Assembly (NCBI RefSeq): GCF_009811755.1 | Contig: NZ_BLIV01000001.1 | Location: 372,001-436,000 of the forward strand | Length of the DNA: 64,000 nucleotides | Reading direction: 5' to 3' | DNA from: Roseobacter cerasinus | GTDB lineage: Bacteria; Pseudomonadota; Alphaproteobacteria; Rhodobacterales; Rhodobacteraceae | Translations under genes and position numbers: made by a program | The notes under the pieces: model-generated | What the model was told of the DNA's origin: nothing | Seen by the model: only the letters and a program-made list of their open reading frames with translations | The model's database searches: none | Shown here: one piece after another, positions 2,374 through 19,203 of the stretch | Layout of the letters: each line of letters starts with the position of its first letter | Position numbering within the stretch: the first letter of the stretch is position 1

Positions 2374-2871
2374 TCATTCTTTCGGATTGGTAAACAAGAA
2401 GGCAGCATTTGCGAGCAGGAGACCTGCGCCGAGGAGGAGCGAGAAGCTTCCGCGTGGAGCCTTGAGCAGCTCCGCGAGTAACATACTGGCGATCTCAAGG
2501 CCCAGGAGTACGCCCTTCGTAGAAATCAACCAGCGCGAGCCAAGAATTGTTCTTGGGCGGCGCGAAGGGAGCCATCTTTCCCATCCGCCTTGGTCCGGGT
2601 TGAGTTCGAGCAAGTACTCTTTGATCTGCTTTGTACGAACGCCGTGGTGGCACCACTGAAGGACGATTGCCATAGTCGTGGCGCCGTGTGCAAAAGCAGC
2701 TGTCCAGGCAAAATCTGGATGCGCTAGCGCGGCCACAGCAAAAACCGAGAATATTGCGACAGCAAATATCATAAGAGCATTTTGAAGAAGAATACGCGAC
2801 AGCAGTTCTTGGCGAAGCGATGCGAGTTCGATGAGACGAGGATCCCAGTCAACTGAAGGGTCTTTCACCAC
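2374..2871 (-). CDS. Predicted four-helix membrane protein of the NOS cluster
   Basis: I do not recognise the family. The protein has about four hydrophobic helices in two hairpins. Between them lies a conserved-looking polar loop with HHGVRTKQIKEYLL, a GWERWLP segment and RPRTILGSRWLISTKG. I place the start at the GTG at 2871 (or 2868), because it lies beside the nitric oxide synthase stop with an AAGGA a few bases upstream. The longer ATG start at 2955 would overlap that gene by 91 bp. The tight overlap implies translational coupling to the nitric oxide synthase, so the two products may act together, for instance as a membrane partner or exporter of the product. Confidence 0.7.
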   Translation of the reverse strand: MVKDPSVDWDPRLIELASLRQELLSRILLQNALMIFAVAIFSVFAVAALAHPDFAWTAAFAHGATTMAIVLQWCHHGVRTKQIKEYLLELNPDQGGWERWLPSRRPRTILGSRWLISTKGVLLGLEIASMLLAELLKAPRGSFSLLLGAGLLLANAAFLFTNPKE

Positions 2872-4142
2872 GCCATCCTTTTCCAGATCTTCCAGCGACG
2901 TAGGACGCGGTCCATCCAGATCGCGAAACGCCGCCGGTGCCGGTCTCCGTACCACGGCATCAAACGCAAGCCGTCCGTTCCGCGATCTCGGTAATAGTTC
3001 GGAACCGGATGGAAGTTCCGCATCTTTAGGTGGAATACTTCACAAGAGGAGCTTGCTTGCGGCGGCACTATCCACCGCCAGTCGGCAGCTACTCGACGAC
3101 CAGCGGCCGACTCTCGTTTATGAAAGATCATAAACTGATCCGACGCTGTATGATGATCAAGAAGAGTGACCCCCGCAGATTGATACGAGTGCAGGACAGC
3201 CTCGTTGAGAACTGTAAGCGCCCGATCCTTCCAGAGAGGATCGGAGCTATTCCGTGTTCGCAGGCCGATGGCCTCTCCGACATCTGGCAAAAGAGCATAA
3301 CGCCCCGCATCGGCGAAATTCCGCGACGCAATCTCGGTACCCATGTAGACGCCGTTGAAGGGAGCACAGGGATAGTCAATACCGCCGATGGTAAGGACCA
3401 TGTTGCTCACTACCGGCACCGTGTACCACCGAAGCCCAAGAGCGGCGATGCCTTGATGTTCGGGGTGCATGATCGCAACCTCGCGCACCACGCCACTTGT
3501 AAGGTCAATGCGGTGGCGCTGATCGTCTTCATCACGGATGAACCATGGCAACAGATCAAACTGGCCAAGACGAGCAGGTGGCTCCCAGCCCATGGCACAT
3601 GCGGTGCGCGTCGCCTCCGCGTTTTGACGATCACCGATCAGTCTACCTTTCGGACCTGCATGACAGGCATATTGGATGATCTGCGGACTATCGATCCAAG
3701 CCGGAAGCTGGTTGCCTTCAACTGGCGGAAACACAGAAATGACCGACCTGATGCGCCCGTCTCCATGCGCTTCGATCAGGTGATCATGCATCCTCGAAGC
3801 AATAGCTTCTGGGCTGCGGATGTCTCGGCAGTCGACGACATCAAGGCTTTCCCAAAAGAGGCGTCCTATACATCGACCATGATTTCGCCACGCCAGGCGC
3901 GCTCCAAAAGCCAGCTCTTCGGGCGTATGTCGGTAGAACCCATATTTGGCGAGATCGCGTCGCACGGTGCTCCACCGGCGTTGCCGGACTGAGTTTGATG
4001 CTTCCGTGGCGTCGTGGAATGCGTCAAGAAACGAACGAGCTTCTTCCCGACGTTCCAGCGCCGAGATGCGGCGAAGTCGCCTCGAAAGCGAATTGCCTCG
4101 GGTGGCGTCAGAACGTCGAAGTCGCGATAGAGCATGTCGCAT
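2865..4142 (-). CDS. nos: Bacterial nitric oxide synthase oxygenase
   Basis: A 425-residue NOS oxygenase, longer than the roughly 360 residues of Gram-positive enzymes because of N- and C-terminal extensions. The heme-thiolate motif is WRNHGRCIGR with Cys91 as iron ligand. Arginine binding is marked by the FNGVYMGTE motif with Glu270, and the pterin/heme region by HHTASDQF and DWRWIVPPQ near residues 330-362. The family oxidises L-arginine to NO and citrulline with electrons from a separate flavodoxin or reductase; no reductase is fused or adjacent here. The residue before the motif Tyr is Val265, where Trp is usual. Its ATG overlaps the TAA of the radical SAM gene (TAATG), so the two are coupled. 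In bacteria NOS either protects cells or nitrates natural products. Confidence 0.9.
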   Translation of the reverse strand: MRHALSRLRRSDATRGNSLSRRLRRISALERREEARSFLDAFHDATEASNSVRQRRWSTVRRDLAKYGFYRHTPEELAFGARLAWRNHGRCIGRLFWESLDVVDCRDIRSPEAIASRMHDHLIEAHGDGRIRSVISVFPPVEGNQLPAWIDSPQIIQYACHAGPKGRLIGDRQNAEATRTACAMGWEPPARLGQFDLLPWFIRDEDDQRHRIDLTSGVVREVAIMHPEHQGIAALGLRWYTVPVVSNMVLTIGGIDYPCAPFNGVYMGTEIASRNFADAGRYALLPDVGEAIGLRTRNSSDPLWKDRALTVLNEAVLHSYQSAGVTLLDHHTASDQFMIFHKRESAAGRRVAADWRWIVPPQASSSCEVFHLKMRNFHPVPNYYRDRGTDGLRLMPWYGDRHRRRFAIWMDRVLRRWKIWKRMAW

Positions 4143-5698
4143 TACATGAGACCATCGAACTGGCGCGCGGCATCGCGCAGCGGTCGCCTATTGATCTCGT
4201 GCACAAGCGCTAGCGCATGGGCTTTTGCCTTGCGGTAAGCCGGAACCCGGGGCTCACGATTTCGGTATATGACTCGTGCTTGTTTCGAGTCTTGCCTGCG
4301 TATTTGCAATGGCACATCGCCGGCAGCCCGCGACATCATAGTTCGCCAGATTGGTGTTCCGAGGTGCAGTGTGAACTCGTTGAAGCGTATACGATCAATT
4401 CTCTCCTTATGCTCTTCCAAGAAGCGCACCGTGGCTTCCATGTCCTCGGCAGTTTCGCCGGGAAAGCCCCGGAACATTGTGCATCGGACTGAGAGTCCAG
4501 CGGAATGGGCATCACGAATGAACTGCGCATTGCGTTCGACATCGCTGCCTTTTTGCATTGCATCAAGTAGTCTTTGGCTCCCGCTCTCGAGGCCGAATGA
4601 AACACGCCGCATTCCCCCCTCGACGGCAATATCGAGATCCTGGCGGGAAAGTCCATTGTCAGATCGCCGATCAACATGCACCGTACCGATCCACTCGGCC
4701 CCGCGCACATATCTTCCAATATCGCGTGCGATCCCTCGGATCATGCCCGGCCAAGAGTTCAGCTTGAGGTCGAGAAAGAGAAAGTTCGTCGTCGAGTGCC
4801 GGTCGGATTGCTCCTGCATTTCGAGCAAGACACTCTCGACGCTCCGGGTGCGGAAAGTGCGTCCAGATGCCGAGATTACGTCCGAGCAGAAGAGACACTT
4901 GTCCCATTGGCAGCCGCGACCGGTCATCAGCGGAACGATGCGCACTGGGTAACGGTCCCAAGGAAAGTCGGTGAAGTCGGGCACCGGCGCATCGTCAAGA
5001 TTCCTGAGCGGAAGAGCCTTCCGCATTGGCCGCCCGTCCGGCACGACGACGCCAGGATGTTCGGTGAGATCTCCACCATCAAGGAGTGTCCGGACAATGT
5101 CAGGAAGCGCGCGGTCGACTTCAGCGCCGACAACCGCCGAAACACCGGGAAGATACCGCCACGCCTCGGCGACATCCTCAAGGTTGAACATAGGTCCCCC
5201 CACCAATACAGGAACCTTTCTCCTGCTTGCGCGAAGTCCGATTTGTTCAACGGTCCTGAAGTGCTGCAGATACGCAGAGAGTAGCACGACATCGTAGCGT
5301 CGGTCCAAAGACCGATCGAATTCGTCAAGTACGCCTGAATGGGGACGCTCGGACCACGCCGCTCTTACGGCGCGCAGCGGCTCGATTAACCGCGCGAAAT
5401 CAAGTGTGTCTGAGAGATGTATGCGTCGCTTCATGTGATCGAGCAGGGTCTCCTGTCGTTCTCTCTGTACGGCAGGCACATCGTGGGCCAGCGGGGTCAG
5501 AACGTCGACGGTCATACTGGCCCGCCGGAGAACTGCGGCCATCAGCCCGATGGCAAGGGTGGGAAAGCTTGCGAAGTTGTTGAGATCTACTATCAGAACG
5601 CGAATTGAATTCTTGTGAGACTGTTGCCCAACGGCATATTGTTTTGAGGGTCGTGCAGAAGCTATAAGGCGCGCCCGACGGCGCTCGAAATCATGCAA
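4142..5698 (-). CDS. B12-binding-type radical SAM protein
   Basis: A 518-residue protein with two parts. Residues 30-220 form a Rossmann-like, cobalamin-binding-type domain (IRVLIVDLNNF, VPVLVGGPMF, GVSAVVGAEVDRALPDI). A radical SAM TIM barrel starts near residue 255. The cluster-binding cysteines are Cys263, Cys268 and Cys271, spaced C-x4-C-x2-C instead of the usual C-x3-C-x2-C. The barrel continues with FLFLDLKLNS, VSFGLESGSQRLL and FRGFPGETAEDM, typical of Elp3/MiaB-like radical SAM enzymes. Members methylate unactivated carbons or make C-C bonds in natural-product pathways. First gene of the leftward operon and coupled to nitric oxide synthase. The substrate is unknown. Confidence 0.85.
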   Translation of the reverse strand: MHDFERRRARLIASARPSKQYAVGQQSHKNSIRVLIVDLNNFASFPTLAIGLMAAVLRRASMTVDVLTPLAHDVPAVQRERQETLLDHMKRRIHLSDTLDFARLIEPLRAVRAAWSERPHSGVLDEFDRSLDRRYDVVLLSAYLQHFRTVEQIGLRASRRKVPVLVGGPMFNLEDVAEAWRYLPGVSAVVGAEVDRALPDIVRTLLDGGDLTEHPGVVVPDGRPMRKALPLRNLDDAPVPDFTDFPWDRYPVRIVPLMTGRGCQWDKCLFCSDVISASGRTFRTRSVESVLLEMQEQSDRHSTTNFLFLDLKLNSWPGMIRGIARDIGRYVRGAEWIGTVHVDRRSDNGLSRQDLDIAVEGGMRRVSFGLESGSQRLLDAMQKGSDVERNAQFIRDAHSAGLSVRCTMFRGFPGETAEDMEATVRFLEEHKERIDRIRFNEFTLHLGTPIWRTMMSRAAGDVPLQIRRQDSKQARVIYRNREPRVPAYRKAKAHALALVHEINRRPLRDAARQFDGLM

Positions 5699-6410: not shown

Positions 6411-6584
6411 CTTTTTCATAGAGAATTGGGCTGATGGAAAACGCCTCTACCAGACATGAGCGCAATTCGGAAACATCGGAAGCTCATAGTCAAACGACAT
6501 GGTGTGATTGCGGCGGCCGCTCTCCGGGGGCGAACGAGGTCCGGTATATTGGCCTCATGGATATAAGCCGTGAGGAGAACGACC

Positions 6585-7100
6585 ATGAAACAGTATGCCG
6601 GATTGAACGTGTCGTTGAAAGAGACGAGCATTTGCATCGTCGATGAAAGTGGCAAGGTCCTGCATCGAGGCTCGGTGGCAACGGAGCCCCAGGCAATTAC
6701 CAACTTCCTGTCTGAGAAGGCGCCGGATCTTGATCGCGTCGTGCACGAGAGTGGAATGCTCTCGACCTGGCTGACGCGAGGCTTGGACGCGCTCGACGTC
6801 CCGGTTGTCTGCATCGACGCGCGCAAGGCCCTTTCCGCACGGCTCAACAAGTCGGACAAGGCCGATGCCGAGGGCTTGGCGCAGCTATCGCGAATGGGGT
6901 GGTACACACAAGTTCATATCCGCAGCGAGGCCGCCGATCGGCTCAAGACTTTGCTTGGTGCCCGCGATCGACTTTTGCGTCTGGGCGGTGGCGGCGAGGA
7001 GGAATTCATCGTTTGCGCCGCATGGGCCTCGCAATCGGAGCCGTCCCAATGGTCAGGCACGCAGTCGGTCAAATCCAGACGGCAAAGATGGGGTAGGTGG
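6585..7100 (+). pseudogene. IS110-family transposase remnant 1 (N-terminal part, frameshifted)
   Basis: The ATG at 6585 opens the DEDD-type N-terminal domain (YAGLNVSLKETSICIVDE, then CIDARKALSARLNKSDKADAEGLAQ), which runs to about residue 130. The reading frame then shifts: the segment GLAIGAVPMV, which normally follows, is read in another frame near 7020-7070. The C-terminal transposase_20 domain is absent, so the element is dead. A second IS110 start follows at 7156. Confidence 0.85.
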
Positions 7101-7155
7101 GCGGCCCGGAATGGTCGATCGTAACCCCATCAATAAGCCGCCTGGAGGAAAATAC

Positions 7156-7287
7156 ATGGCACATTATGTCGGGATCGACGCGTCCTTCGAAACCGCTAAC
7201 GTTTGCGTTGTCGATGATGATGGAAACCTTTGCCTAGAACGCAAGATTGAGGCGGAACCAGATGCGATCGTCGAGTCAGTTCAGTGA
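7156..7287 (+). pseudogene. IS110-family transposase remnant 2 (N-terminal fragment)
   Basis: This is a fresh IS110 start with its own GGAGG at 7144-7148 and the opening AHYVGIDASFETANVCVVDD. It reads for only about 43 residues before sequence of an IS5-type element begins. It differs from the adjacent remnant, so it comes from another IS110 copy that was cut by the next insertion. Confidence 0.8.
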
Positions 7288-7299
7288 AAATATGCACTT

Positions 7300-7786
7300 T
7301 GATCTTCGTGGATAGCTCCATCGTCAAAGCCCACAGGTCGGCAAGCGGCGCAAAAGGGGGGAGCTGGGCCAAGGTATTGGACGCTCACGCGGCGGTCGCG
7401 GCAGCAAGGTTCACGTCGCTGTAGATGATCTGGGGCGTCCTTTGCGGATCGATGTGACCGGCGTTCAAACTCATGACAGCAAGGCATTTAGCGCGTTTCT
7501 GGACTGGGACGCGCCGCCCTCGGCTATCATTGCAGACAAAGCCTACGGCAGCGCTGCGATCAGGCAGGCCATCGCAGATGAAGGCGCCGTCGCGGTCATC
7601 CCTTCGAAATCAAACGCCAAAGTGCCGATACCCCATGCCCCCAAACTCTATGCCATGCGAAATCTGGTAGAACGCTTCTTTTGCCGCATGAAGGATATGC
7701 GACGACTGACTACGCGCTACGAGAAGCTGAAGCGAAACTTCCTGTCCATGCTCCACATCTTTGCAATCAGGTGCTGGCTGAATTGA
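7300..7786 (+). pseudogene. IS5-family transposase remnant (C-terminal two thirds, frameshifted)
   Basis: The reading starts with DSSIVKAHRSASGAKGG (the DDE motif region with S-x-IV-x-AH). It shifts frame near 7365 into GRSRGGRGSKVHVAVDDLGRPL and stays open from 7442. The end has the second catalytic Asp region (AIIADKAYGS) and the Glu region VERFFCRMKDMRRL. The N-terminal third is missing and the frameshift inactivates it. It sits between IS110 and IS66 fragments. Confidence 0.82.
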
Positions 7787-7863
7787 GTCCACATTCTAGC
7801 ATATTCGTATCAGGCACCAGGTTCGTTCACCATCGCGACCGCCTTTTGAAAATCTCTACGCGG

Positions 7864-8286
7864 CTACTCGTCTAATAACTCTCTTGCCAGCAAAGACCGC
7901 ATCATGAGGTCCGCTGGCCTATCTCCATTCCAACGTTCATAGCGGATTTTGTCGGTGGTACCTCTGGCGGTGACACGCTTCCAGTCGAGGCCTTCGAATA
8001 AGGCCTGAAACTGAGATTTGTTCAGAGTAATCATGCCGTCTTGGATGCGCGGCCACTCGAAGCCCTTTCCTTCGATCCACTTGTACGTCATCACGAGACC
8101 GGTTCCATCCCAGACGATCAGCTTCAACCGGTCAGCCTGTTTCGAGCGGAAGATGAAGATGGCACCGCTGAAGGGGTCGAGCTCAAATTCATTCAAGACA
8201 ATCGCTGCCAGGCCATCCATGCCTTTCCTAAAGTCGACAGGTTTGGTCGCGACGTAGAATTTGAAATTACCCGCCAGAGAGATCAT
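7864..8286 (-). CDS. tnpB: IS66 family accessory protein TnpB
   Basis: A complete 140-residue IS66 Orf2: VATKPVDFRKGMDGLAAIV near the start, the GAIFIFRSKQADRLKLIVWDGTG core and the FEWPRI motif. Its ATG overlaps the tnpA stop as ATGA, the normal IS66 arrangement. The TnpC transposase that should follow is missing (only IS5 debris lies beyond 7864), so the protein has no mobile element to serve. Confidence 0.88.
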   Translation of the reverse strand: MISLAGNFKFYVATKPVDFRKGMDGLAAIVLNEFELDPFSGAIFIFRSKQADRLKLIVWDGTGLVMTYKWIEGKGFEWPRIQDGMITLNKSQFQALFEGLDWKRVTARGTTDKIRYERWNGDRPADLMMRSLLARELLDE

Positions 8287-8818: not shown

Positions 8819-10777
8819 TTAATATCCCCTCACTTCGTCAGGCTGAAAGCCTTTTGCGGTAGTTGGCTTTTTGCCCAGGATGGTTTTGAGGATGTCATTC
8901 ATGGTCTTTCTGTCGTTGTCGAAGCCACCATGCGTTTCGCTGTCGGTGATGCTTGGAGCCCGGCCCGCATAGTGGATCGTGTAACCGGTTTTAGTGGGCA
9001 CCTCACCGACGAATTTCTCCATCCCCAGAAGCGGCATTTTTTTCTCATCCTCAAAGGCATTGGACACAAAGTACAGAAGGGATTTGCGGTAAGGACCGAC
9101 CTTGTCATCCTGTTCGCGCTGATCGATGAGATTGTACTGGACGAGATTTTTGAGCCCTGAGGCGGCGCCGGTTTTCCCGATCCTGGGATGATAGCTTTTC
9201 TTGAAAAGGTCGATGGTACATGCAGGGGCCATGAGAGAACAAGATTCAACAGGCGTCTTGAGCGGGTTCGCTGCATCCATGGCGTCCAGAAGATGGGCTA
9301 ACAGGATAGAACCGGCGCTGTGACCAACCAGATGAACCTTGAGCGGTTTTGAACGTTTGGCATTGCCATCAAGCAGGACCTTGAGAGCCTTTCGACCACC
9401 GCCAGAGGCCTTGAAGCTTTGATTTGCATCCCATTTCATATCGCGCCAGATTGCGGTGCCCGGTCCGCGTGCAATCGATTCCAGCACCCGGTCGAAAAAG
9501 TCGGAAAGCCCGCCTACACGTGCTTCTGCCTTATCGCGTGAATTGACTATGACGTCGGTGAGCGATTCAAAGAAACCCGTCTCCCACATAAAGTGGATGG
9601 GGTAGATCCCGTTTCGTTTGAAGACGTCCTTCATTTTGCGCACGCGGTTTGCCGAGGCTGCCGAATTGTTGAGCCCCCCATGGGCATAAAACACCAGATG
9701 CTGATAGCTGCGATCAGCGGCAGCTGTGTCATCTGCGAGAAGGTCGGCAGTTTCCTTGATGGTTGTAAGTGGGCTTGGATATTTCCCGGTTTCAACCAGC
9801 TTGCCGTCATTCAGATGGATGATGTGACCGATAATGTCTTCGTGGCGCGGGGCGCGAACACTTTGTGTGCCAAATAGGCTTTCGCTCTCGGGTGTCGGTT
9901 CAGTGATCGTGAGATCGAAGGCGTCCGGTGTCGGCACCGCAAGGCGCAAGACCCAGGCATCCATGACGGTCGCTGCCCAATCTTCATAGCGCCATCTGGC
10001 AATGCCCGGGCGTTTGCCAAACCCACCCCAGCTTTCGCCCCATGAATTTTGAATCAGGAACCCAATGTCGTCATAGCCGACAATAATGAAGGCATGTCCG
10101 CCCTCGGTCAGGTGAGACGGTTTGATGTCGCCTTTTGCCGGATTCTGCCAACCTCGATGGATTTGCGCAGAAACATAGATGACGCCGACTTCGTTGAGCG
10201 CGGCGTGATAGTCGTTAACTTCAGGGCGCAGACGATAATAAGCGCCAAGACCGACATGGCGGGCGTCTTTGGCGTGTTTGACGGTGAGAGCCCAATTCTT
10301 CTGACCGTCTTTGTAGGGGGCAACGTCTTCGCTACAGGCGCCATTGTTGTAGAACCCCTTGAGAGCTCCGCGAATACTGGACCCTTCATAATCCTCGCCT
10401 GGCCATTCATCATTGATCTTAGCCATCTCATACAACATGCGGGGACTTGCTATCGGAACGGAGGCGGTCGGATCAATGCGTCGATGGCGGATCCGGTTCA
10501 TCAACGTGATGGCGCTTGACAGCGCGAACCCAGTGCAGGCGCCTTCGTGACCCTGGTCGCGGATCGGGCTCATATCCGCTGTTGGCGGATCCAGTCTCAA
10601 AGCAAGATCAAGCAGAGCAGGTTCGTAGATGCGATCACGCAAATCGGTTGCGTCTGGCTGGACGTTCAGGACTCTGTTGGCCAGTCGGGGAGCGGCATCA
10701 AGAGTTTTGGAGGGGTCGGTTGTTTTCTTAGCGGCCATGCTTTTGGATTTGCGTGATTTTGCGGGGGACTTGCTCAT
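8819..10777 (-). CDS. Papain-like cysteine peptidase fused to an alpha/beta-hydrolase domain
   Basis: A 652-residue fusion. Residues 45-280 form a C1A papain-like domain: oxyanion Gln75 and nucleophile Cys81 in RDQGHEGACTGFALSSA, His228 in EGGHAFIIVGYDD, and Asn244 in QNSWGESWGG. No signal peptide or classical inhibitory propeptide is visible; the N-terminus is a Lys/Ser-rich tail. Residues 350-650 resemble a serine lipase/esterase, with an HGG oxyanion element near 366 and the nucleophile elbow GHSAGS with Ser487. AGGAGG lies 8 bp before the ATG. It is downstream of a heme oxygenase gene in the same direction, separated by an IS3 remnant. I infer a role in protein or lipid turnover linked to that cluster. 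Confidence 0.8.
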   Translation of the reverse strand: MSKSPAKSRKSKSMAAKKTTDPSKTLDAAPRLANRVLNVQPDATDLRDRIYEPALLDLALRLDPPTADMSPIRDQGHEGACTGFALSSAITLMNRIRHRRIDPTASVPIASPRMLYEMAKINDEWPGEDYEGSSIRGALKGFYNNGACSEDVAPYKDGQKNWALTVKHAKDARHVGLGAYYRLRPEVNDYHAALNEVGVIYVSAQIHRGWQNPAKGDIKPSHLTEGGHAFIIVGYDDIGFLIQNSWGESWGGFGKRPGIARWRYEDWAATVMDAWVLRLAVPTPDAFDLTITEPTPESESLFGTQSVRAPRHEDIIGHIIHLNDGKLVETGKYPSPLTTIKETADLLADDTAAADRSYQHLVFYAHGGLNNSAASANRVRKMKDVFKRNGIYPIHFMWETGFFESLTDVIVNSRDKAEARVGGLSDFFDRVLESIARGPGTAIWRDMKWDANQSFKASGGGRKALKVLLDGNAKRSKPLKVHLVGHSAGSILLAHLLDAMDAANPLKTPVESCSLMAPACTIDLFKKSYHPRIGKTGAASGLKNLVQYNLIDQREQDDKVGPYRKSLLYFVSNAFEDEKKMPLLGMEKFVGEVPTKTGYTIHYAGRAPSITDSETHGGFDNDRKTMNDILKTILGKKPTTAKGFQPDEVRGY

Positions 10778-11435: not shown

Positions 11436-14400
11436 TTAAGGTGATGCGAAGCGCTCAAACATCTCCGGCAGCAACGTATTTCGGTAGAGGCCTTCAAAGT
11501 CTGCCGGTCGAATGGCCGCCGGTTGGCCAGCGCGACCGAGCATGCGGAAAAATGACTCCCATTGCTTGGTGGTGAGATCATCCAAAGCCTTTTTCCCCTC
11601 CAAGAACGCCATGAATTCTTTTTCCGGGATCAGATCGTCGCCATGCTTGGCAGCCATGCCAGTAAGCGTCCTCATATAATCCGCCAGCAGACCTTCATCG
11701 ATCATGCCATTTTCATCGTACACCATTGTGCGCTTGCTCGGACGGCGTTTCGCCATTTCGTCGAGAGGAATGCCGCGACCCAACAGGAGATTTTTTAGTC
11801 CGCCAAATTTGAAGGTCGACCCAAGGGTTAGAAACAGCGCTCGAAATCCGCTCGTTTCAAAGGTTTGCCAGCCTTTCAGATTTTCTCTTAGCCCGGCGCG
11901 CGCGAGGTCATCGCCCAGGTTGAAGGGAAGGATGTGCTTTTCCATATCCGTCAGTTTGAGTTGTACGCCTTCACGCTTCTCGTCCTTGCGATAGCCTCTG
12001 AGCTGATTGACTTCTTTCTGCGTCAATATCCATTCGCTCACAAACCCTGGATGCCCAGGCGACTGATAGCCGGGCCAAGGGTATTTCTTTTCATCCAGAA
12101 TAGCCTTGGCCGCTGCGATCAAATCGGCGCGGGTGACGCCGTCGGGGTCTTTGGTCAGTATGTCGCGGGCGAAGACCCGGCCCTCGCCTTCCAGGTCGGC
12201 GAAGACGGCGCCATCGGTTATGTCGACGATATAGACCGTTTCACCATGCGCAACACGGATCAGCTGGTTGGGCACATTTTCATCGAAATGCGCAGCCTTC
12301 CACGGATCACCAAGCCCCATGTCGCGAATATGCTGCTTGCCCCATATGATGATGCCATTGGATTCGAGCGGATGCTCGTCCGGCGCCTCAGCTGCAGAGG
12401 TGCCGACATATTCGTAGGTGTTGACCGTCTTCCGGGTCTCCAGCCAGTCGCGCAGTTCCGGGCAGTGCAGGTAGAGCAGCTTTTCCTTATCAACAGCTTC
12501 GACCAGATTGATGGCCGTCCAGCTGACTTCGTCGGGGCGCCATTTCTCGGTGAGATAAGGGTTCTTGCGGATGCGGCTGGTGGCCTCCTGCACAAAGGTC
12601 TGAAAGCCTTCATTGGTGATCGCCAAGCCGTCAGGCTTATGCTCATTCAAGGTCAGCCCGATGATCGCATCCAGGGTTTCGATGCCTGCCGGATAGAGTT
12701 TTTCAAGCTTTGCAATCGTCGCTTTGGACGTCTTGCTTGATGGATCGAGGAAGAGGTGCTCCCACGTCTTGCTTGGCGGGATGTTATGGGCCCGCTGATA
12801 ATCCGTCCAGGAGGGTGTACCCCGCTGCCGATCTTTGCGGATTTCCTGCTCCAACATGTTCATGACGCCTTCTTCGGTCGCCATGTTCCGGAAGAAATCG
12901 GCCGTATTGCCGGCAACAGGTGCGCCCAGACGGGTGTTCATCATGTAGTAATAGACCGCGCCCAGCCCCTCATTCTTGAGGAATTGGTGGCCATCGAGCT
13001 CGCGCAAGTTCATCATATTCACTTCGCGCGTGCCGTCTTGGGCGATCTCTCCGATGGGCGGACACTTCAGCTGATCGACCCAGATTTGGTGGCCAAAACG
13101 GTAAGCCTTGCTGAAGAAATTCCCTTTGATTTCCGGCTTGTTCTTCTCAACCTTCCCGGCGGCAATACCGTGGGCCACAGGATCCGTGCCTTGTTCGGGC
13201 CGGTAAATCTTCTTGTCGAAATGCGGCAGCTTGCGTTCCGCACGACCGAACAGATTGGCATTCAGCCCGTTGACCACGGCTTCATTGGCAAACAGGGTGT
13301 GTGTCCAGGTGCCGGTGTGGATTTTCACATATGTCATGGTGATCACGCGCCGCGCGATCTGGAAAATCTGATTGTCTGACCAGTCCGGGTAACGCTCCTT
13401 TAGAACATCCGCGACCCAATTGTGATGGCGCGCATAAAGCGTGTGTTCAGCTTCCAGGGGGGCCGTCATGTTGCGCCCAAAGCCAGTAACAATCTGCTTT
13501 TGCAGCTGGCCGTCTTCGCCAACGGGCACCTCTTTCAGCGGAAGAAATCCGCCCGAGCCGTCGTCTTCGGTTTCTTCCAGATAGAGCTTGCCGCCTGGCA
13601 CTGGCGTACCGTCGGGACGGGAGCGCACTTCTGCAAGCGTTTCGATGTCGCTGCCATAGAGGTGGCTCATGTCCCACCAGACAGTGGTGCCATGCATGCC
13701 TTCGCCATCTGCGCGCAAGGCATGCGGTGCATCGGACCGGCTCCAATCAAATTTCACGCCAAGTGCGGCCCATTCGCTGTTTGGGTCGATGGGGATGGCG
13801 TGTTTCAAAGCATTATCAGGCGCGGTTTGCGCCACATCATGGACCAGTTGCTGCAAGTGGGCCGCAGCATGAAAACTGGCCGTCATGGCTTCGATGGTTT
13901 TGCCATCGCGATAGCCAAAGGCTTTCACAACATCGGCTTCGCTGGGCAATTCTGGATTCTGGGATTGGTCTTCCGGGCGATAGCCTTCTGTCAGGCCGTG
14001 ATCGACAAACTCTTGACCGACACGGCCTTCACCAGGGCCAAACCGTGTATCAAGATGCGCGCCATCGGGGGAAAAGCCAGAATCTGCCCATTTTGGAGTG
14101 GCGCCCTTGGGCAGCTGACCGACAATGTCACCGCGTTCGCCGTCAGGGTCGCGCTCGCCCTTCTCCATCTGCGTGCGCGCATCGCCCAAAGCCGCGAGCC
14201 GCAGAATGCCAAGTTTGCGCTGTGTCCACCGGCCTGCATTGCCGGGCGTCGCGCCGGAGTTTGCCCAGGCACCAACGGGACCCAGCGCCAGAGATACCAG
14301 AGAATCCTTGAAATTTCGTGCCTTATCCAGCAGCGATTTCTCCGGGATATGATCGCCTGGGCGCTTGAAATCCGTGCACAGCACCCACGCGTTTTTGTGG

Positions 14401-14783
14401 CCGTCATAAGCCTTGGCCGGGTCGGTTTCGAGGTAGTCTTTCGTCAGAGTATTGGGCCGCAGGACGCCCGCGCCGCTATTGCCATCCACCCGGTTTTTCG
14501 CGATCTGGTCGCTCCAGAATTCAGCAAACTTGTGGCTTGGCTCTTTCTGAGCGGCCTTTTCGAACCAATCCGCTGCCGAGAGAAAGTCTCCGACATTGCG
14601 GAACGCGTGCGCGGCGAGTGCATAATCCTCCGCAGTCGCATCACCGTTTTCATGGCGCTCGACATAGAGCTCTATGGCTGTTGTGAAGTTGCCCGCATTG
14701 ATGTTTTCAAGCGGGTCTTCAGATTTAAAATCAACCCGTTGGTTGTGCTTTGCGGCGACAGGGCACCCGGACATATCATTCAT
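11436..14783 (-). CDS. Heme peroxidase/alpha-dioxygenase-like protein with caleosin-like C-terminus
   Basis: 1115 residues from the ATG at 14783, chosen because GGAGG lies 6 bp upstream. Residues 30-100 are helical and TPR-like. Residues 270-700 match the animal-peroxidase/PIOX fold: candidate distal His315 in QLVHD, WWDMSHLYGSD, EHTLYARHHNWVADVLKERY, KIHTGTWTHTLF as in plant alpha-dioxygenases, and the heme-ligand motif AYRFGH with His565. The tyrosine sits four residues before that His, not three as in plant alpha-dioxygenases, so the chemistry is uncertain. Residues 947-1115 recall caleosin peroxygenases: KHILPFNLGDD with His950, YDENGMID, and a terminal FEGLYRNTLLP. No signal peptide. The gene follows a molybdenum hydroxylase. 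Inferred role: fatty-acid oxygenation. Confidence 0.75.
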   Translation of the reverse strand: MNDMSGCPVAAKHNQRVDFKSEDPLENINAGNFTTAIELYVERHENGDATAEDYALAAHAFRNVGDFLSAADWFEKAAQKEPSHKFAEFWSDQIAKNRVDGNSGAGVLRPNTLTKDYLETDPAKAYDGHKNAWVLCTDFKRPGDHIPEKSLLDKARNFKDSLVSLALGPVGAWANSGATPGNAGRWTQRKLGILRLAALGDARTQMEKGERDPDGERGDIVGQLPKGATPKWADSGFSPDGAHLDTRFGPGEGRVGQEFVDHGLTEGYRPEDQSQNPELPSEADVVKAFGYRDGKTIEAMTASFHAAAHLQQLVHDVAQTAPDNALKHAIPIDPNSEWAALGVKFDWSRSDAPHALRADGEGMHGTTVWWDMSHLYGSDIETLAEVRSRPDGTPVPGGKLYLEETEDDGSGGFLPLKEVPVGEDGQLQKQIVTGFGRNMTAPLEAEHTLYARHHNWVADVLKERYPDWSDNQIFQIARRVITMTYVKIHTGTWTHTLFANEAVVNGLNANLFGRAERKLPHFDKKIYRPEQGTDPVAHGIAAGKVEKNKPEIKGNFFSKAYRFGHQIWVDQLKCPPIGEIAQDGTREVNMMNLRELDGHQFLKNEGLGAVYYYMMNTRLGAPVAGNTADFFRNMATEEGVMNMLEQEIRKDRQRGTPSWTDYQRAHNIPPSKTWEHLFLDPSSKTSKATIAKLEKLYPAGIETLDAIIGLTLNEHKPDGLAITNEGFQTFVQEATSRIRKNPYLTEKWRPDEVSWTAINLVEAVDKEKLLYLHCPELRDWLETRKTVNTYEYVGTSAAEAPDEHPLESNGIIIWGKQHIRDMGLGDPWKAAHFDENVPNQLIRVAHGETVYIVDITDGAVFADLEGEGRVFARDILTKDPDGVTRADLIAAAKAILDEKKYPWPGYQSPGHPGFVSEWILTQKEVNQLRGYRKDEKREGVQLKLTDMEKHILPFNLGDDLARAGLRENLKGWQTFETSGFRALFLTLGSTFKFGGLKNLLLGRGIPLDEMAKRRPSKRTMVYDENGMIDEGLLADYMRTLTGMAAKHGDDLIPEKEFMAFLEGKKALDDLTTKQWESFFRMLGRAGQPAAIRPADFEGLYRNTLLPEMFERFASP

Positions 14784-14896
14784 TGCAACCTCCAAAAAAA
14801 CTTGGGTTGAGGTGCGGCAGGGCACCAAAAACCCTGAATAAGCTAAAAAAATGCGACAGCAGTCAGCTTAAATTGGCAGCCTGCTTTGGACGTATT

Positions 14897-17869
14897 CTAG
14901 TTTATTCGCCCGCTCAGGGCGACAATTTTTTCTGGCATAACGGGAATACTCTCAATCTCGACACCGAGAGCATCGTTGAGCGCACTCACAATGGCGCTCG
15001 GTGAAACCACGGCGCCTGCTTCGCCGACGCCCTTTGCACCACGAGGTCCGAGGCCATCGCCGGACTCGAGTAGATCAACGGTAACATCTTTCGGAATGTC
15101 GAGGCTCGTCGGGACGCCATATTCATGCATGCCTTGATTGCGCACAATCCCTTCGACAACTTCCACCTTTTCAAACAGAGCCTGACCAATCCCCATCGCG
15201 ATACCGCCGACAAGCTGGCCTCGGATGATATGCTCGTCATGGATCTTTCCAACATCATGGCAGGCTGCATAGTTGAGGATTCGAACCTCCCCGGTCTCTG
15301 GATTGACGGCCAGATCGCACCCGTGGCTGGCATGCATGAAATCCACCGGGCCAACCTGGTTGCCGGTTGCGCTCAATATGCGGCCCCGTGGCAAATGTGC
15401 TTCTCCAACTGCGGCGATCTGTCCAGTCTGATGGGATGATGCCAGAGCCGCCCAGGAAATTGTCTTTGACGGTGCCTCAGTGACGGCAAACCCATCCTTG
15501 ATCACCATCACCTCTTCGGGGCTGACGCCAAGCGACCGGGCCGCCAATTGTCTGCCCGTGGTCTGAATGCGGTCAACGGCGTCCAGCACCGCTCGACCTC
15601 CCATGTAATAGCTGCGGCTGCCGCTGACCCGGGGCAGATAACTGTCGATGCCGAAGGGGAAATGCCGGTTCTTGACCCACGCCGTCGTACCATTCGCCGC
15701 GCGGAAAATTGGGCTGGCCAGCCCCAGTCGGCGGAGCACCTGCATCAGCGGCTTGTCGTCGCGCAGCACCTTCGCACCCGACATTTGCAGGCGTTCGATG
15801 AGCCGAAATCCCCGCGCGCGCCACCGCCCCGGAGCGCGTCCCGAGGACATCAGATCTCCGGTTGGATCATCAATCGCTGCCTGATCCACGGCGTAGACGG
15901 GCATCCGAGACAGCTTGAATCGCTCCATGACGAGCCGGGGCAGGCCCCGCGTGAAGCCTGTCCCGGCATCTCCGATGTCCGAACCGATGTGCCACGTCCC
16001 TGCGCCATCAACGGCTATCCTGGCCACAAAGCGGTCCACCAAACCATAGGGATAGCCGTATTTTGCATGCGTCGCAGCAAACCCGCGGCCGATACGCCAG
16101 TTTTTCGATGGGGGGTCGGGTCGGTCGCCAAGGCGTTTGATCACCATGTCCATCGTGGCAGACAAGACCTGCCGGACTTCAGGTGCAGCCCGTTTGGTGC
16201 CGGTTCCCTCTATGTGGCGCGACAGGAAGTTCGTCTTGCGCATGGCCACCGGGTCGAGATCCAGGGCTCTGGCGGCCTTGTCCACTATGGCTTCTATGCC
16301 AAAGGTCACCTGTTGCGAGCCATAGCCCCGCATCGGCGCAGCCACCAGGTTGTTGGTGACGACACCGCGCGCCCAAACGCTCACATTCTGGATGTCATAA
16401 GCGCCCTCCGCTTCAACCGCCAGAAGCGAAACAATCGTGGGCGTGAGGGCTGAATACGCTCCGGCATCTGCAAGCAAGTCCGCTTTCAGGGCGACGATCC
16501 GGCCATCTTTCATCGCACCGAGGGTATAATCGCCTGTGAAAAAGTGCCTCTTGGAGCTGCGTCCAAGCATCTCCGCCCGGTTGAGGACAAGTCTGACCGG
16601 CTGGCCCGTCTTTTCGGCCAGCAGCGCCAGATAGCCCTCGGTATGTGTCATAAGGTACTTGCCGAAGGAGCCGCCCATGCGCGGCGCGACCACCCGTACA
16701 GATGTTTCCTCACGCGACAACAGTCTTGCGACAAAGCGGCGAACGCGGTGCGGCGTTTGCGTCGGGACAGCAAGAACGAGCGTGCCGTCCTCCATCCACG
16801 CGCTTCCCCCTTCCGGCTCAATGCAACTATGATCGCTGTTGCCACAGCCGAACCGTCCACTGACAACAAGATCGGCCTTCTTGAGCGCCTCCTCAGCGTC
16901 CCCATGCTCGGTTCTGAGATCAGCAATGATGTTGCTCTTATTCGGATGAACACGCGGCGCAGACGACTCCAGAGCGTTCCGCGCGTCAGTGACGGCAGCG
17001 CGCGGACGATACACGACCTTGATCCTTGCCACCGCGTCCATGGCGATGGCTTCGGACTGTGCGGCAACCAGCGCAATGGCGTCCGAACGGGACCGGACAC
17101 GCCCGGATGCCAGAAAAGGCTCATCGTTGTCGATGATCCCGTTGCCGCCCTGGTTCTTACCGGGAATGTCAGTGTGGGTGAGCACAGCTTCGACCCCTGG
17201 GAGGGCCTTGGCTTCCGACGTGTCTATGCTCAGGATGTCGGCAGCCGGCCACTCGCTCCAGAGAACCTTGGCCACGAGCGCCTCCTGTTTCCACGTATCC
17301 GTGGGATAGCGGCTGATGCCTTCCATGCGATCGCGAAGGTCGCGTTGTCCGGCATCGCACTCTGCTGCGCTGGTACCCTCCCGGGCCGCCTCCAGGGATT
17401 TGACCAGCGGGTCATAGCCCGAACAGCGGCAGATATTTCCAGACAGCGCGCGCCGGGCGTCGGCATGTGTCAGCGAAGGGTCGCCCGAGACATGATGCGC
17501 GGCAGAGACCATGACCCCGCAGGCGCAATACCCGCATTGAAACGCCTCTCGCGTCACGAGTTGATCCTTTAACGCCTTCACCTTATCTGCATCCACGGCC
17601 ACCGGGTCGTGCTCCAGCCCCGCTGCAGTGGTAATCCGCTTTCCAGACATTTGAACAGCGAGGGTGAGGCAGGAACACACGGGTGCCCCATCAACCAAAA
17701 CGGTGCAGGCCCCGCAAACGCCTTCGCCGCAGCCGAAGCGGACGTCCTTCAGGCCCAGGTCGTGATGCAACAGTTTCTGAAGGGTCGTCTCAACCGGTAT
17801 CGAGAGCGTCTTTGGCTCTGCATTGACTGTCACATCAATGGTGATCCGGTTTGGGTTATCCTCCGTCAC
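14897..17869 (-). CDS. Xanthine dehydrogenase-family molybdenum hydroxylase, fused [2Fe-2S] and Mo subunits
   Basis: 990 residues. Residues 1-165 carry both [2Fe-2S] centres: plant-type Cys47, Cys52, Cys55 and Cys67 (CGEGVCGAC), and the helical-domain Cys112, Cys115, Cys147 and Cys149 (CGYC, CRCSGY). Residues 190-990 are the molybdopterin part, with GGSFGKYL, APMRGYGSQQ and the catalytic GVGEAG with Glu950. In most bacterial relatives these are separate S and L subunits. Only the FAD subunit is separate here, overlapping by ATGA. Such enzymes hydroxylate aldehydes or N-heterocycles using water. Beside a dioxygenase that could release fatty aldehydes, an aldehyde oxidase role is attractive but unproven. 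Confidence 0.87.
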   Translation of the reverse strand: MTEDNPNRITIDVTVNAEPKTLSIPVETTLQKLLHHDLGLKDVRFGCGEGVCGACTVLVDGAPVCSCLTLAVQMSGKRITTAAGLEHDPVAVDADKVKALKDQLVTREAFQCGYCACGVMVSAAHHVSGDPSLTHADARRALSGNICRCSGYDPLVKSLEAAREGTSAAECDAGQRDLRDRMEGISRYPTDTWKQEALVAKVLWSEWPAADILSIDTSEAKALPGVEAVLTHTDIPGKNQGGNGIIDNDEPFLASGRVRSRSDAIALVAAQSEAIAMDAVARIKVVYRPRAAVTDARNALESSAPRVHPNKSNIIADLRTEHGDAEEALKKADLVVSGRFGCGNSDHSCIEPEGGSAWMEDGTLVLAVPTQTPHRVRRFVARLLSREETSVRVVAPRMGGSFGKYLMTHTEGYLALLAEKTGQPVRLVLNRAEMLGRSSKRHFFTGDYTLGAMKDGRIVALKADLLADAGAYSALTPTIVSLLAVEAEGAYDIQNVSVWARGVVTNNLVAAPMRGYGSQQVTFGIEAIVDKAARALDLDPVAMRKTNFLSRHIEGTGTKRAAPEVRQVLSATMDMVIKRLGDRPDPPSKNWRIGRGFAATHAKYGYPYGLVDRFVARIAVDGAGTWHIGSDIGDAGTGFTRGLPRLVMERFKLSRMPVYAVDQAAIDDPTGDLMSSGRAPGRWRARGFRLIERLQMSGAKVLRDDKPLMQVLRRLGLASPIFRAANGTTAWVKNRHFPFGIDSYLPRVSGSRSYYMGGRAVLDAVDRIQTTGRQLAARSLGVSPEEVMVIKDGFAVTEAPSKTISWAALASSHQTGQIAAVGEAHLPRGRILSATGNQVGPVDFMHASHGCDLAVNPETGEVRILNYAACHDVGKIHDEHIIRGQLVGGIAMGIGQALFEKVEVVEGIVRNQGMHEYGVPTSLDIPKDVTVDLLESGDGLGPRGAKGVGEAGAVVSPSAIVSALNDALGVEIESIPVMPEKIVALSGRIN

Positions 17870-18717
17870 GCGAACGAAGCCTTTTCCAGAACGTCGCTGA
17901 GACCGGCCCTGATCAGACTGCGCTTGTAGCTTGAGATATCAGTCTCCACCGACGCGCCACCATTCTCTTCGATGGCAGTATTGGCGGCTTTCACGATCAG
18001 GGCATCCGTCAAAACCTCCTGGTCAAGAAGAGCTTCGACCGCGGTCAGGCGGCGTATGGCGAAAGTGTTGCCTCCGACTGCGATCCGCGGCTGTCTGGCC
18101 CTGCCATTCTCCAATACAAGGGAAACCGCGATGTTCACGATGGTTTTGCCAGCGCTCTTGCGCCACGCGAATTTGCGATAGGCCGAGCGGTAGCCGGGCG
18201 GCATGCGGATCTCTACCTTCCTGATCAGACTTGCCTCCGGCAGCCCCGTCGCGAAGAGCTCATCCATGGCGCGGCGCTCACTGCCTTGCGCACTCTCCAA
18301 GACAACCTCCGCGCCGCACGCCAGCAATGTGGTCGCCAGATCGAACGCGCTGGCGAATTCGCCGGGTGACCCGGCCCCAGCAAGACCCGCTGACAGACTG
18401 CCGCCCAAGGTGGCCGACCGTCTGACCTGTGGCGTCCCCAGATGGCTGGCCGCAGCGCTCAATCCAGGGAGATACGTGTTTGTGTCCGGTGCCCGCGCGA
18501 TCCAGTCGACCGATACCATGGCACCCAGCTCTGCGAAGTCTTGCGTGCAGTGGAAGGCGCGCAAGTCGGCGATGTCCGAGATATCGACCAGAGCCTCCGG
18601 CGCATTGGCGCGCAAGGTCATCTCCGGGACGATGATTGTCCCGCCTGCAAGCGGCGTTGCGCCCTTGCCGATCCATTCCATGGCTGCTTCCACCGAGCTG
18701 ACGCGCACGTAGTCCAT
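17866..18717 (-). CDS. FAD-binding (CoxM-type) subunit of the molybdenum hydroxylase
   Basis: 283 residues. The FAD-binding PCMH fold is marked by PLAGGTIIVPEM near residue 21 and ATLGGSLSAGLAGAGSPG near residue 103, with a CO-dehydrogenase flavoprotein C-terminal domain. It passes electrons from the [2Fe-2S] centres of the large subunit to an acceptor. GAGG lies just before the ATG, and the stop overlaps the next gene as ATGA, so the two subunits are translated together. Confidence 0.87.
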   Translation of the reverse strand: MDYVRVSSVEAAMEWIGKGATPLAGGTIIVPEMTLRANAPEALVDISDIADLRAFHCTQDFAELGAMVSVDWIARAPDTNTYLPGLSAAASHLGTPQVRRSATLGGSLSAGLAGAGSPGEFASAFDLATTLLACGAEVVLESAQGSERRAMDELFATGLPEASLIRKVEIRMPPGYRSAYRKFAWRKSAGKTIVNIAVSLVLENGRARQPRIAVGGNTFAIRRLTAVEALLDQEVLTDALIVKAANTAIEENGGASVETDISSYKRSLIRAGLSDVLEKASFA

Positions 18718-18729
18718 GTGACCCTCGGC

Positions 18730-19203
18730 CTAATCCTGAACCCTCGCCTTGTCGACCAAGGCGAAGTCCAGAATTCTGGTTTTCCCCCACCAGACCTTCC
18801 CGAGGTAAAGGCCAGGCTCTATTTCACGTATTTCGTCCCTTATCTTTTTGGCGAAAAACGACGTTCTTGAGTAATCGATAACAATCGTTTCTTTCTCATC
18901 GATCCAACTGGCCTGCTTGTAGACCTTGGCGATGACAAAGGTGAGGCTGAGAGGCGTAATCTTGTTAATGAGTATGCCGGTTTCATGGCGTGGCGGCATG
19001 AGATCAAAGACCTTTCCCTGCCAAGCGAAGAGCCGGACGAAGGCCGCGAATGACTTTGATAACAATGACCCCGTGAGTATTGCCGTCCCGCGTGTGTCAC
19101 CGCTCGGGATCGTTCCGGCTGACGCTTGCTTGTAAATCTGGTCCAGCTGTTCTCTGGACAGACCCAGCCACTCTTTGACGCGCGTATTCATGCCGTGTTG
19201 CAT
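18730..19203 (-). CDS. Conserved protein of unknown function heading the Mo-hydroxylase/heme-oxygenase operon
   Basis: 157 residues with no signal peptide and no clear transmembrane helix. I do not recognise a named family. The C-terminal half has a distinctive run: ASWIDEKETIVIDY, SFFAKKIRDEIREI, then GLYLGKVWWGKTRILDFAL, which suggests a beta-rich ligand-binding fold. It lies 12 bp upstream of the FAD subunit and is the first gene of the leftward run, so it should be co-expressed with the oxidoreductase. An ATG four codons in (19191) is an alternative start. A lipid- or cofactor-handling role is only a guess from context. Confidence 0.65.
   Translation of the reverse strand: MQHGMNTRVKEWLGLSREQLDQIYKQASAGTIPSGDTRGTAILTGSLLSKSFAAFVRLFAWQGKVFDLMPPRHETGILINKITPLSLTFVIAKVYKQASWIDEKETIVIDYSRTSFFAKKIRDEIREIEPGLYLGKVWWGKTRILDFALVDKARVQD

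What the first reader, a model, noticed from the sequence alone, without database searches (positions are those of the whole stretch)
11436..14783. Fusion of an alpha-dioxygenase-like heme oxygenase with a caleosin-like peroxygenase domain
Seen: the core shares the WWD...YGS, HHNWVADVLKERY and KIHTGTW blocks of plant alpha-dioxygenases, and the last 170 residues resemble caleosins (KHILPFNLGDD, YDENG, a terminal FEGLYRNTLLP). Known: in Arabidopsis leaf oil bodies an alpha-dioxygenase makes a 2-hydroperoxy fatty acid that a caleosin reduces to a 2-hydroxy acid. Inference: this bacterium joins both steps in one polypeptide. I know of no described bacterial fusion of this kind.
Basis: partly seen in the sequence, partly recalled or inferred. 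Interest (0 to 1): 0.85.

Follow-up and report, generated by a model that had tools for sequence, protein, structure and literature searches.

The report
Divergent bacterial alpha-dioxygenase-like fatty-acid oxygenase
A rare bacterial heme enzyme, encoded next to a molybdenum enzyme of the aldehyde-oxidising type, looks like a distant relative of plant fatty-acid alpha-dioxygenases and carries an unusual tail, for which no reliable link to plant caleosins was found.

Summary
The gene is real: 1115 residues on the minus strand (14783 to 11436), with three relatives of similar length (63-73% identical) in other Pseudomonadota and a shorter one on an Acaryochloris plasmid. The core (270-741) belongs to the peroxidase-cyclooxygenase superfamily; its best solved matches are rice and Arabidopsis alpha-dioxygenase, and it keeps their fatty-acid-positioning residues (H489, T494, R737). 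It has YRFGH where alpha-dioxygenases have YR[ML]H and forms a deep separate branch.

The caleosin half of the claim fails the sequence tests. Pfam's caleosin model does not match four proteins or a consensus; similarity to two plant caleosins is essentially at chance level; only one His is conserved in the tail where caleosins need two; the canonical EF-hand loop is absent there. A partial AlphaFold model hints at an EF-hand-like helical array (weak, E > 1).

Genes for a molybdenum hydroxylase of the aldehyde-oxidoreductase type lie directly upstream, in the same order as in a gammaproteobacterium. Best reading: an alpha-oxidation operon (fatty acid, 2-hydroperoxide, shortened aldehyde, acid), not a demonstrated dioxygenase-caleosin fusion. 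New variant of a known kind.

The parts
11436..14783 (-). Gene for the 1115-aa alpha-dioxygenase-like protein
   Evidence: Open frame, ATG 14783, stop ending at 11436; three full-length relatives at 71, 63 and 73% best-segment identity; GGAGG at 14789-14793
14490..14726 (-). N-terminal TPR-like helical segment, residues about 20-98
   Evidence: TPR matches below Pfam cut-offs in the window protein and in two relatives; engineered TPR chains in the PDB search; among the better modelled stretches of the otherwise poor full model
12561..13976 (-). Peroxidase-cyclooxygenase core, residues 270-741
   Evidence: PF03098 E 2e-46; rice and Arabidopsis alpha-dioxygenase E about 8e-25; tree
13839..13841 (-). 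Distal His H315
   Evidence: Aligned with the distal HD site of alpha-dioxygenase homologues
13302..13319 (-). H489 and T494, equivalents of rice H311 and T316 (carboxylate and alpha-carbon positioning)
   Evidence: KIHTxxWT block; absent from the peroxidase-type row L007; roles from PMC8720084 passages
13089..13103 (-). Y561-R-F-G-H565: catalytic Tyr / proximal His site, one residue longer than YR[ML]H
   Evidence: alignment; rice Y379 and H382 named in PMC8720084 passages
12573..12575 (-). R737, equivalent of rice R559 (carboxylate)
   Evidence: Invariant in the five long proteins; the peroxidase-type row L007 also has Arg in this column, so it is not specific
12162..12197 (-). Degenerate EF-hand-like loop DLEGEGRVFARD (residues 863-874); canonical (DHDNDGRIRMSD) in the Acaryochloris relative
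   Evidence: Motif scan; no EF-hand Pfam match
11439..11966 (-).
   Evidence: AF2 pLDDT block means 61-91 over residues 1020-1109, below 50 over about 948-1013; weak calmodulin-type Foldseek matches, all E > 1; no caleosin match and scores at chance level
11934..11936 (-). H950, the only His at an invariant column of the tail in the four long proteins; falls on caleosin His70 in a non-significant alignment
14897..17869 (-). 2Fe-2S / molybdopterin hydroxylase subunit (990 aa), aldehyde-oxidoreductase type
   Evidence: MoCoBD_1, MoCoBD_2, Ald_Xan_dh_C, Fer2, Fer2_2; best NCBIfam model molybdopterin-dependent aldehyde oxidoreductase, below its cut-off; 61% identical gene directly upstream of the relative in L003
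17866..18717 (-). FAD-binding subunit of the same enzyme, overlapping the 990-aa gene
   Evidence: FAD_binding_5, CO_deh_flav_C; 46% identical counterpart in L003
18730..19203 (-). 157-aa protein of unknown family, with relatives near the dioxygenase gene in L002 and L004
   Evidence: No Pfam or NCBIfam match; 48 and 46% identity to L002 and L004 open frames

Best explanation
It is a divergent bacterial fatty-acid alpha-dioxygenase-like heme oxygenase with an N-terminal TPR-like segment and a possibly EF-hand-like C-terminal extension, working with the molybdenum enzyme encoded just upstream. Inferred mechanism: heme and a tyrosyl radical (Y561) abstract the alpha hydrogen of a fatty acid held by H489/T494/R737; O2 gives a 2-hydroperoxy acid; this loses CO2 to give the aldehyde one carbon shorter; the Mo/Fe-S/FAD enzyme oxidises the aldehyde to the acid. 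The tail most likely has a structural, regulatory or targeting role. Shown: homology, conserved substrate-site residues, conserved gene order. Inferred: substrate, chemistry, pathway, role of the tail.
For: Core homology to solved alpha-dioxygenases. Distal H315, H489, T494, R737 and a Tyr-Arg-...-His block kept in the window protein, its three long relatives and Acaryochloris, matching roles given in PMC8720084 (passages). The tree puts the clade on the alpha-dioxygenase side of a 100/100 branch that separates three peroxidases. Gene order FAD subunit, Mo/Fe-S subunit, dioxygenase is the same in the window and in the gammaproteobacterial L003; the best NCBIfam model for the Mo subunit is an aldehyde oxidoreductase. 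EF-hand hints: a canonical loop in Acaryochloris, a helix-loop-helix model, and 30 of the 50 Foldseek rows listed (of 113) being EF-hand proteins by name, a few of them by recall.
Against: The YRFGH spacing equals that of peroxidases (FRFGH in L007), so Y561 may not sit where the catalytic Tyr of alpha-dioxygenases does; the full-length model is too poor to check (mean pLDDT 40). R737 is not specific, since L007 has Arg there too. The clade is a long branch and treekit warned that its joins may be false; its place relative to alpha-dioxygenases is unresolved (55/56). L002 and L004 show no Mo genes in the stretches held (about 8 kb each side) and have a DyP-type peroxidase instead. NCBIfam scores of the Mo and FAD subunits are below the curated cut-offs. 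No EF-hand Pfam family matches, and all Foldseek E-values exceed 1.
Confidence: 0.5

Rival explanations
1. One reading: alpha-dioxygenase fused to a caleosin-like peroxygenase that reduces the 2-hydroperoxide to a 2-hydroxy acid in the same polypeptide.
For: Collinear but non-significant alignment placing H950 on caleosin His70 and YDENG on YDNEG (probability 0.5%, E 0.12 for one target); H950 invariant in 4 of 4; AtCLO3 was the top non-family hit of the tail model, at E 3.6; in Arabidopsis alpha-DOX1 and the caleosin AtCLO3 are reported to act together (PMC6914826, passage); caleosins are said to occur in bacteria too (PMC9807586, passage, data not shown there).
Against: PF05042 does not match the window protein, three relatives or a consensus; whole-length profile score matched or beaten by 201 of 300 shuffles; no second invariant His; canonical EF-hand loop absent from the region and a less hydrophobic best segment than in two caleosins.
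Confidence: 0.1
2. The core is a heme peroxidase of the same superfamily, acting on another substrate or on H2O2, not a fatty-acid dioxygenase.
For: YRFGH register as in peroxidases; long separate branch; DyP-type peroxidase genes near the relatives in L002 and L004; R737 also present in the peroxidase-type row L007.
Against: H489 and T494, both replaced in L007, are kept. For the window protein the solved alpha-dioxygenases score about 18 or more orders of magnitude better in E-value than cyclooxygenases and peroxidases, whereas L007 is best matched by a lactoperoxidase.
Confidence: 0.22
3. It is a fatty-acid dioxygenase of another regiospecificity (cyclooxygenase or linoleate-dioxygenase type), whose hydroperoxide is used by different partners in different bacteria.
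For: Same superfamily; partner genes differ between window/L003 and L002/L004.
Against: The kept residues are those described as holding the carboxylate and placing the alpha carbon in plant alpha-dioxygenases; cyclooxygenases score far lower.
Confidence: 0.15

Closest known systems
Plant alpha-dioxygenases (rice 4kvj, Arabidopsis 4hhr) and the cyanobacterial CalDOX/LepDOX (PMC8720084)
   Same: Core family, distal His, His/Thr/Arg substrate residues, Tyr-Arg before the proximal His
   Different: One extra residue between Tyr and proximal His; only 23.6-27.4% identity to the listed alpha-dioxygenase-type plasmid hits from H2 to H19; N-terminal TPR-like segment; about 330 residues after the core; deep separate branch
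Caleosin/peroxygenases (PF05042)
   Same: One invariant His in a comparable place; possibly an EF-hand-derived fold (weak)
   Different: No profile match; no second invariant His; no canonical EF-hand loop in the region; no significant sequence similarity
Acaryochloris marina plasmid pREC1 peroxidase family protein WP_012167232.1
   Same: Matches residues 5-952 at 28.5% identity: N-terminal segment, core and EF-hand-like loop region
   Different: Lacks the last about 175 residues; loop is canonical; no Mo oxidase among the 17 features listed around it, in a gene table that is incomplete
Molybdopterin-dependent aldehyde oxidoreductases (neighbour genes)
   Same: Domain set and Fe-S/Mo plus FAD subunits
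   Different: Below the NCBIfam cut-offs; substrate unknown

Membership tests
Alpha-dioxygenase (fatty acid alpha-oxidase) | Significant homology to alpha-dioxygenases within the peroxidase-cyclooxygenase superfamily | tested here: met
   tree position on the alpha-dioxygenase side but unresolved in detail
Alpha-dioxygenase (fatty acid alpha-oxidase) | Substrate residues (rice H311, T316, R559) | tested here: met
   H489, T494, R737 in the window protein, three long relatives and Acaryochloris; the Arg is also in L007
Alpha-dioxygenase (fatty acid alpha-oxidase) | Catalytic Tyr three residues before the proximal His (rice Y379, H382) | tested here: inconclusive
   Both present but four residues apart (Y561, H565) in the four long proteins and five apart in Acaryochloris; no usable core model
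Alpha-dioxygenase (fatty acid alpha-oxidase) | Forms 2-hydroperoxy fatty acids | not testable with these tools
   Needs an enzyme assay
Caleosin/peroxygenase (PF05042) | Match to the family profile | tested here: not met
   No match (limit 1; limit 10) or 45; two recalled plant caleosins score 5e-76 and 3e-77 as positive controls
Caleosin/peroxygenase (PF05042) | Canonical calcium-binding EF-hand loop | tested here: not met
   Strict motif absent from the region in 4 of 4 proteins, present in both recalled caleosins
Caleosin/peroxygenase (PF05042) | Two invariant heme-coordinating histidines | tested here: not met
   Only H950 is at an invariant column; none at the place aligned with the second caleosin His in 4 of 4
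Caleosin/peroxygenase (PF05042) | Hydrophobic lipid-binding segment, often with a proline-rich motif | tested here: inconclusive
   Best 19-residue hydropathy 1.07 in the window tail against 2.05 and 1.62 in two caleosins; the proline-knot pattern tried matched neither caleosin, so it tells nothing
Caleosin/peroxygenase (PF05042) | Heme in the domain and peroxygenase activity | not testable with these tools
   Needs expression of the tail

The most novel reading that the evidence does not exclude
A self-contained bacterial oxylipin enzyme: a new deep branch of fatty-acid dioxygenases whose EF-hand-derived tail is a caleosin-like fold too diverged for sequence detection, binding a second heme through H950 and steering the 2-hydroperoxide to a 2-hydroxy acid instead of the aldehyde.
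Probability: 0.08. Interest if true: 0.8.

Novelty: new variant of a known kind. Interest (0 to 1): 0.42.

Why it matters
Alpha-dioxygenase sequences are known from bacteria, and cyanobacterial ones have been characterised (PMC8720084, passages). This long architecture, and its operon with a molybdenum enzyme of the aldehyde-oxidoreductase type, did not turn up in the listings of searches (open-access papers only). If the pathway is right, it gives a genetic handle on bacterial fatty-acid alpha-oxidation and an enzyme set for shortened aldehydes and acids. The YRFGH variant would also test how strictly a dioxygenase needs the Tyr-His spacing that separates it from peroxidases.

Tried and rejected
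Caleosin membership: rejected on profile, residue and score grounds. A plasmid tblastn and a viral-contig scan with one of them found no caleosin. A PF05042 scan of 398 genomes of the phylum gave 0 over the cut-off and 1 weak match (E 0.008, broken by two stops).

Standalone copies of the tail: a profile of the four tails matched only the window's own genome among 398 genomes of the phylum, nothing credible in PDB sequences (two tRNA methyltransferase sequences at E 0.8), and one E 7 fragment in plasmids.

Structure: the tail model (residues 800-1115) is only partly confident (mean pLDDT 61) and the full-length model is unusable (40), so the latter was not searched. Foldseek against viral models gave nothing at E <= 0.001. 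Promoter and terminator scans found 6 and 8 sites against 3.6 and 8.6 expected, so nothing was built on them.

Rows: L019 was kept in the motif table although its longest frame was the wrong one, and left out of the tree. L009 was left out there too, as it equalled L015 in length, first 40 residues and each printed motif. The 391-403-aa neighbour in L004/L002 looks catalase-related to me from memory; searches did not confirm it.

Full report
What is there. The coordinates hold one long gene on the minus strand: ATG at 14783, stop ending at 11436, 1115 residues, with GGAGG five bases before the ATG. A pattern-based scan of one genome per species returned three full-length relatives, in Novosphingobium (L002, 1121 aa), Pontixanthobacter (L004, 1122 aa) and a Porticoccaceae MAG (L003, 1160 aa), with 71, 73 and 63% best-segment identity. 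Such proteins look rare: matches were found in 3 of 385 genomes of the class and 4 of 295 of the family, of which only the window's own was full-length and the others covered the core or part of it; in the group of L003's genome the only match among 112 was that genome. A 938-aa protein on an Acaryochloris plasmid matches residues 5-952 at 28.5% identity and lacks the last part.

The core. Residues 270-741 match PF03098 at E 2e-46. The best solved relatives are rice fatty acid alpha-oxidase and Arabidopsis alpha-dioxygenase at about 8e-25; cyclooxygenases follow at about 1e-6. Aligned with bacterial alpha-dioxygenase-like proteins, the window protein keeps distal H315, the KIHTxxWT block (H489, T494) and R737. 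In rice H157 is the distal ligand, H311 and R559 interact with the carboxylate and T316 positions the alpha carbon (PMC8720084, passages seen). A peroxidase-type homologue, L007, whose best PDB match is a lactoperoxidase, has other residues at H489 and T494 but does have the Arg. The Tyr/proximal-His site differs: YRFGH in the window protein and its three long relatives and YRPVGH in Acaryochloris, against YR[ML]H in the alpha-dioxygenase rows and FRFGH in L007. In the tree of 18 rows the four long proteins form one group (100/99) and join Acaryochloris (100/99); three peroxidases are split off at 100/100; whether the clade is sister to alpha-dioxygenases or inside them is unresolved (55/56), and the program warned that long branches, among them this one, may be joined falsely.

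The tail. Pfam's caleosin model does not match the protein (limit E 1), its tail, the three relatives or a consensus (limit 10; HMMER's filters drop most matches above about 0.1). In a six-frame search of five genomes or records it gave only sub-threshold matches elsewhere, in two of the five. Profile alignment gives a collinear pairing that puts H950 on AtCLO1 His70 and YDENG on YDNEG, at probability 0.5% and E 0.12 for a single target. Against decoys, AtCLO3 was the best non-family hit at 3.8 bits (best shuffle 3.0) but at E 3.6; AtCLO1 ranked 235 of 771; in the reverse search the four tails ranked 17, 115, 130 and 201 of 807, with shuffles above them. A whole-length profile score was matched or beaten by 201 of 300 shuffles; singly, AtCLO3 was matched by 7 and AtCLO1 by 132 of 161 decoy segments. 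Caleosins are described as having a single EF-hand, a lipid-binding segment and two invariant heme-coordinating histidines (PMC6309107, passages seen). Here H950 is the only His at an invariant column, and the strict EF-hand loop is absent from the region.

What the tail may be. AlphaFold with four sequences gives block-mean pLDDT of 61-91 for residues 1020-1109, helices joined by loops with short strands, and 63-86 for parts of 830-929; residues about 948-1013, which include H950, are below 50. Foldseek has no significant match; of the 50 rows listed (113 in all), 30 are EF-hand proteins by name, mostly calmodulins, a few judged by recall, all with E above 1. The Acaryochloris relative carries a canonical EF-hand loop at 873 (DHDNDGRIRMSD), degenerate in the window at 863 (DLEGEGRVFARD). 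No EF-hand Pfam family matches. I read the C-terminal third as possibly a degenerate EF-hand-like array; this is weak to moderate evidence.

Surroundings. Directly upstream on the same strand are a 990-aa Fe-S/molybdopterin subunit and a 283-aa FAD subunit; the best NCBIfam model of the former is a molybdopterin-dependent aldehyde oxidoreductase, below its cut-off. L003 has the same three genes in the same order, 61 and 46% identical for the Mo and FAD subunits. In the stretches held for L002 and L004 there is no counterpart of the Mo or FAD gene; a DyP-type protein, two conserved genes without family matches and a relative of the window's 157-aa protein are found there instead. IS110- and IS66-type genes lie about 3-5 kb downstream of the dioxygenase gene. 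The patchy distribution fits horizontal transfer (inference).

Mechanism. The best-supported explanation is fatty-acid alpha-oxidation: the dioxygenase makes a 2-hydroperoxy acid that decomposes to CO2 and the shortened aldehyde (as described for alpha-DOX in PMC6914826, passage seen), and the Mo enzyme oxidises the aldehyde. Homology, residues and gene order are shown; chemistry and substrate are inferred.

Novelty. Papers were searched, seen as listings. One search (caleosin, heme peroxidase, fusion) listed two papers; their titles and abstract starts concern Aspergillus flavus. Word counts in papers opened: 'fusion' and 'caleosin' 0 in PMC8720084 and in PMC9305512; 'fusion' and 'peroxidase' 0 in PMC6309107. 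PMC8720084 states that alpha-dioxygenase sequences occur in five bacterial phyla including Proteobacteria, and PMC9807586 mentions caleosins in bacteria, data not shown. The library is open-access only. I rate this a new variant of a known kind.

Noticed in passing
window 2865-4142 (-): A nitric oxide synthase oxygenase-domain protein (PF02898, E 1.4e-122), preceded on the same strand by a radical SAM protein with a weak B12-binding match at 4142-5698.
   Followed up: partly
window 18730-19203 (-); L002 12603-13121; L004 3286-3735: A protein family of about 150-170 aa, without Pfam or NCBIfam match in the two members scanned, found near the dioxygenase gene in two different gene settings.
   Followed up: partly
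window 8819-10777 (-): A papain-like (PF00112) protein with weak alpha/beta-hydrolase matches; a relative (31% over 334 aa) lies about 5 kb downstream of the dioxygenase gene in L004, at 16176-18686.
   Followed up: no
L002 11347-15820 and L004 3764-7648: Conserved neighbour genes in two Sphingomonadales: a DyP-type protein, a 423-425-aa protein without matches and a 391-403-aa protein that looks catalase-related (label recalled, not confirmed).
   Followed up: partly
L014 2723-5551 and L018 2726-5575: Rhizobium and Phyllobacterium plasmid alpha-dioxygenase-like proteins of 942 and 949 aa with about 425 residues before the matched part; neighbours include a cytochrome c gene (L014) and thiamine pyrophosphate-binding and patatin-like genes (L018).
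   Followed up: no
window 6570-8286: IS110-type and IS66-type transposase genes between the left part of the window and the dioxygenase cluster.
   Followed up: partly
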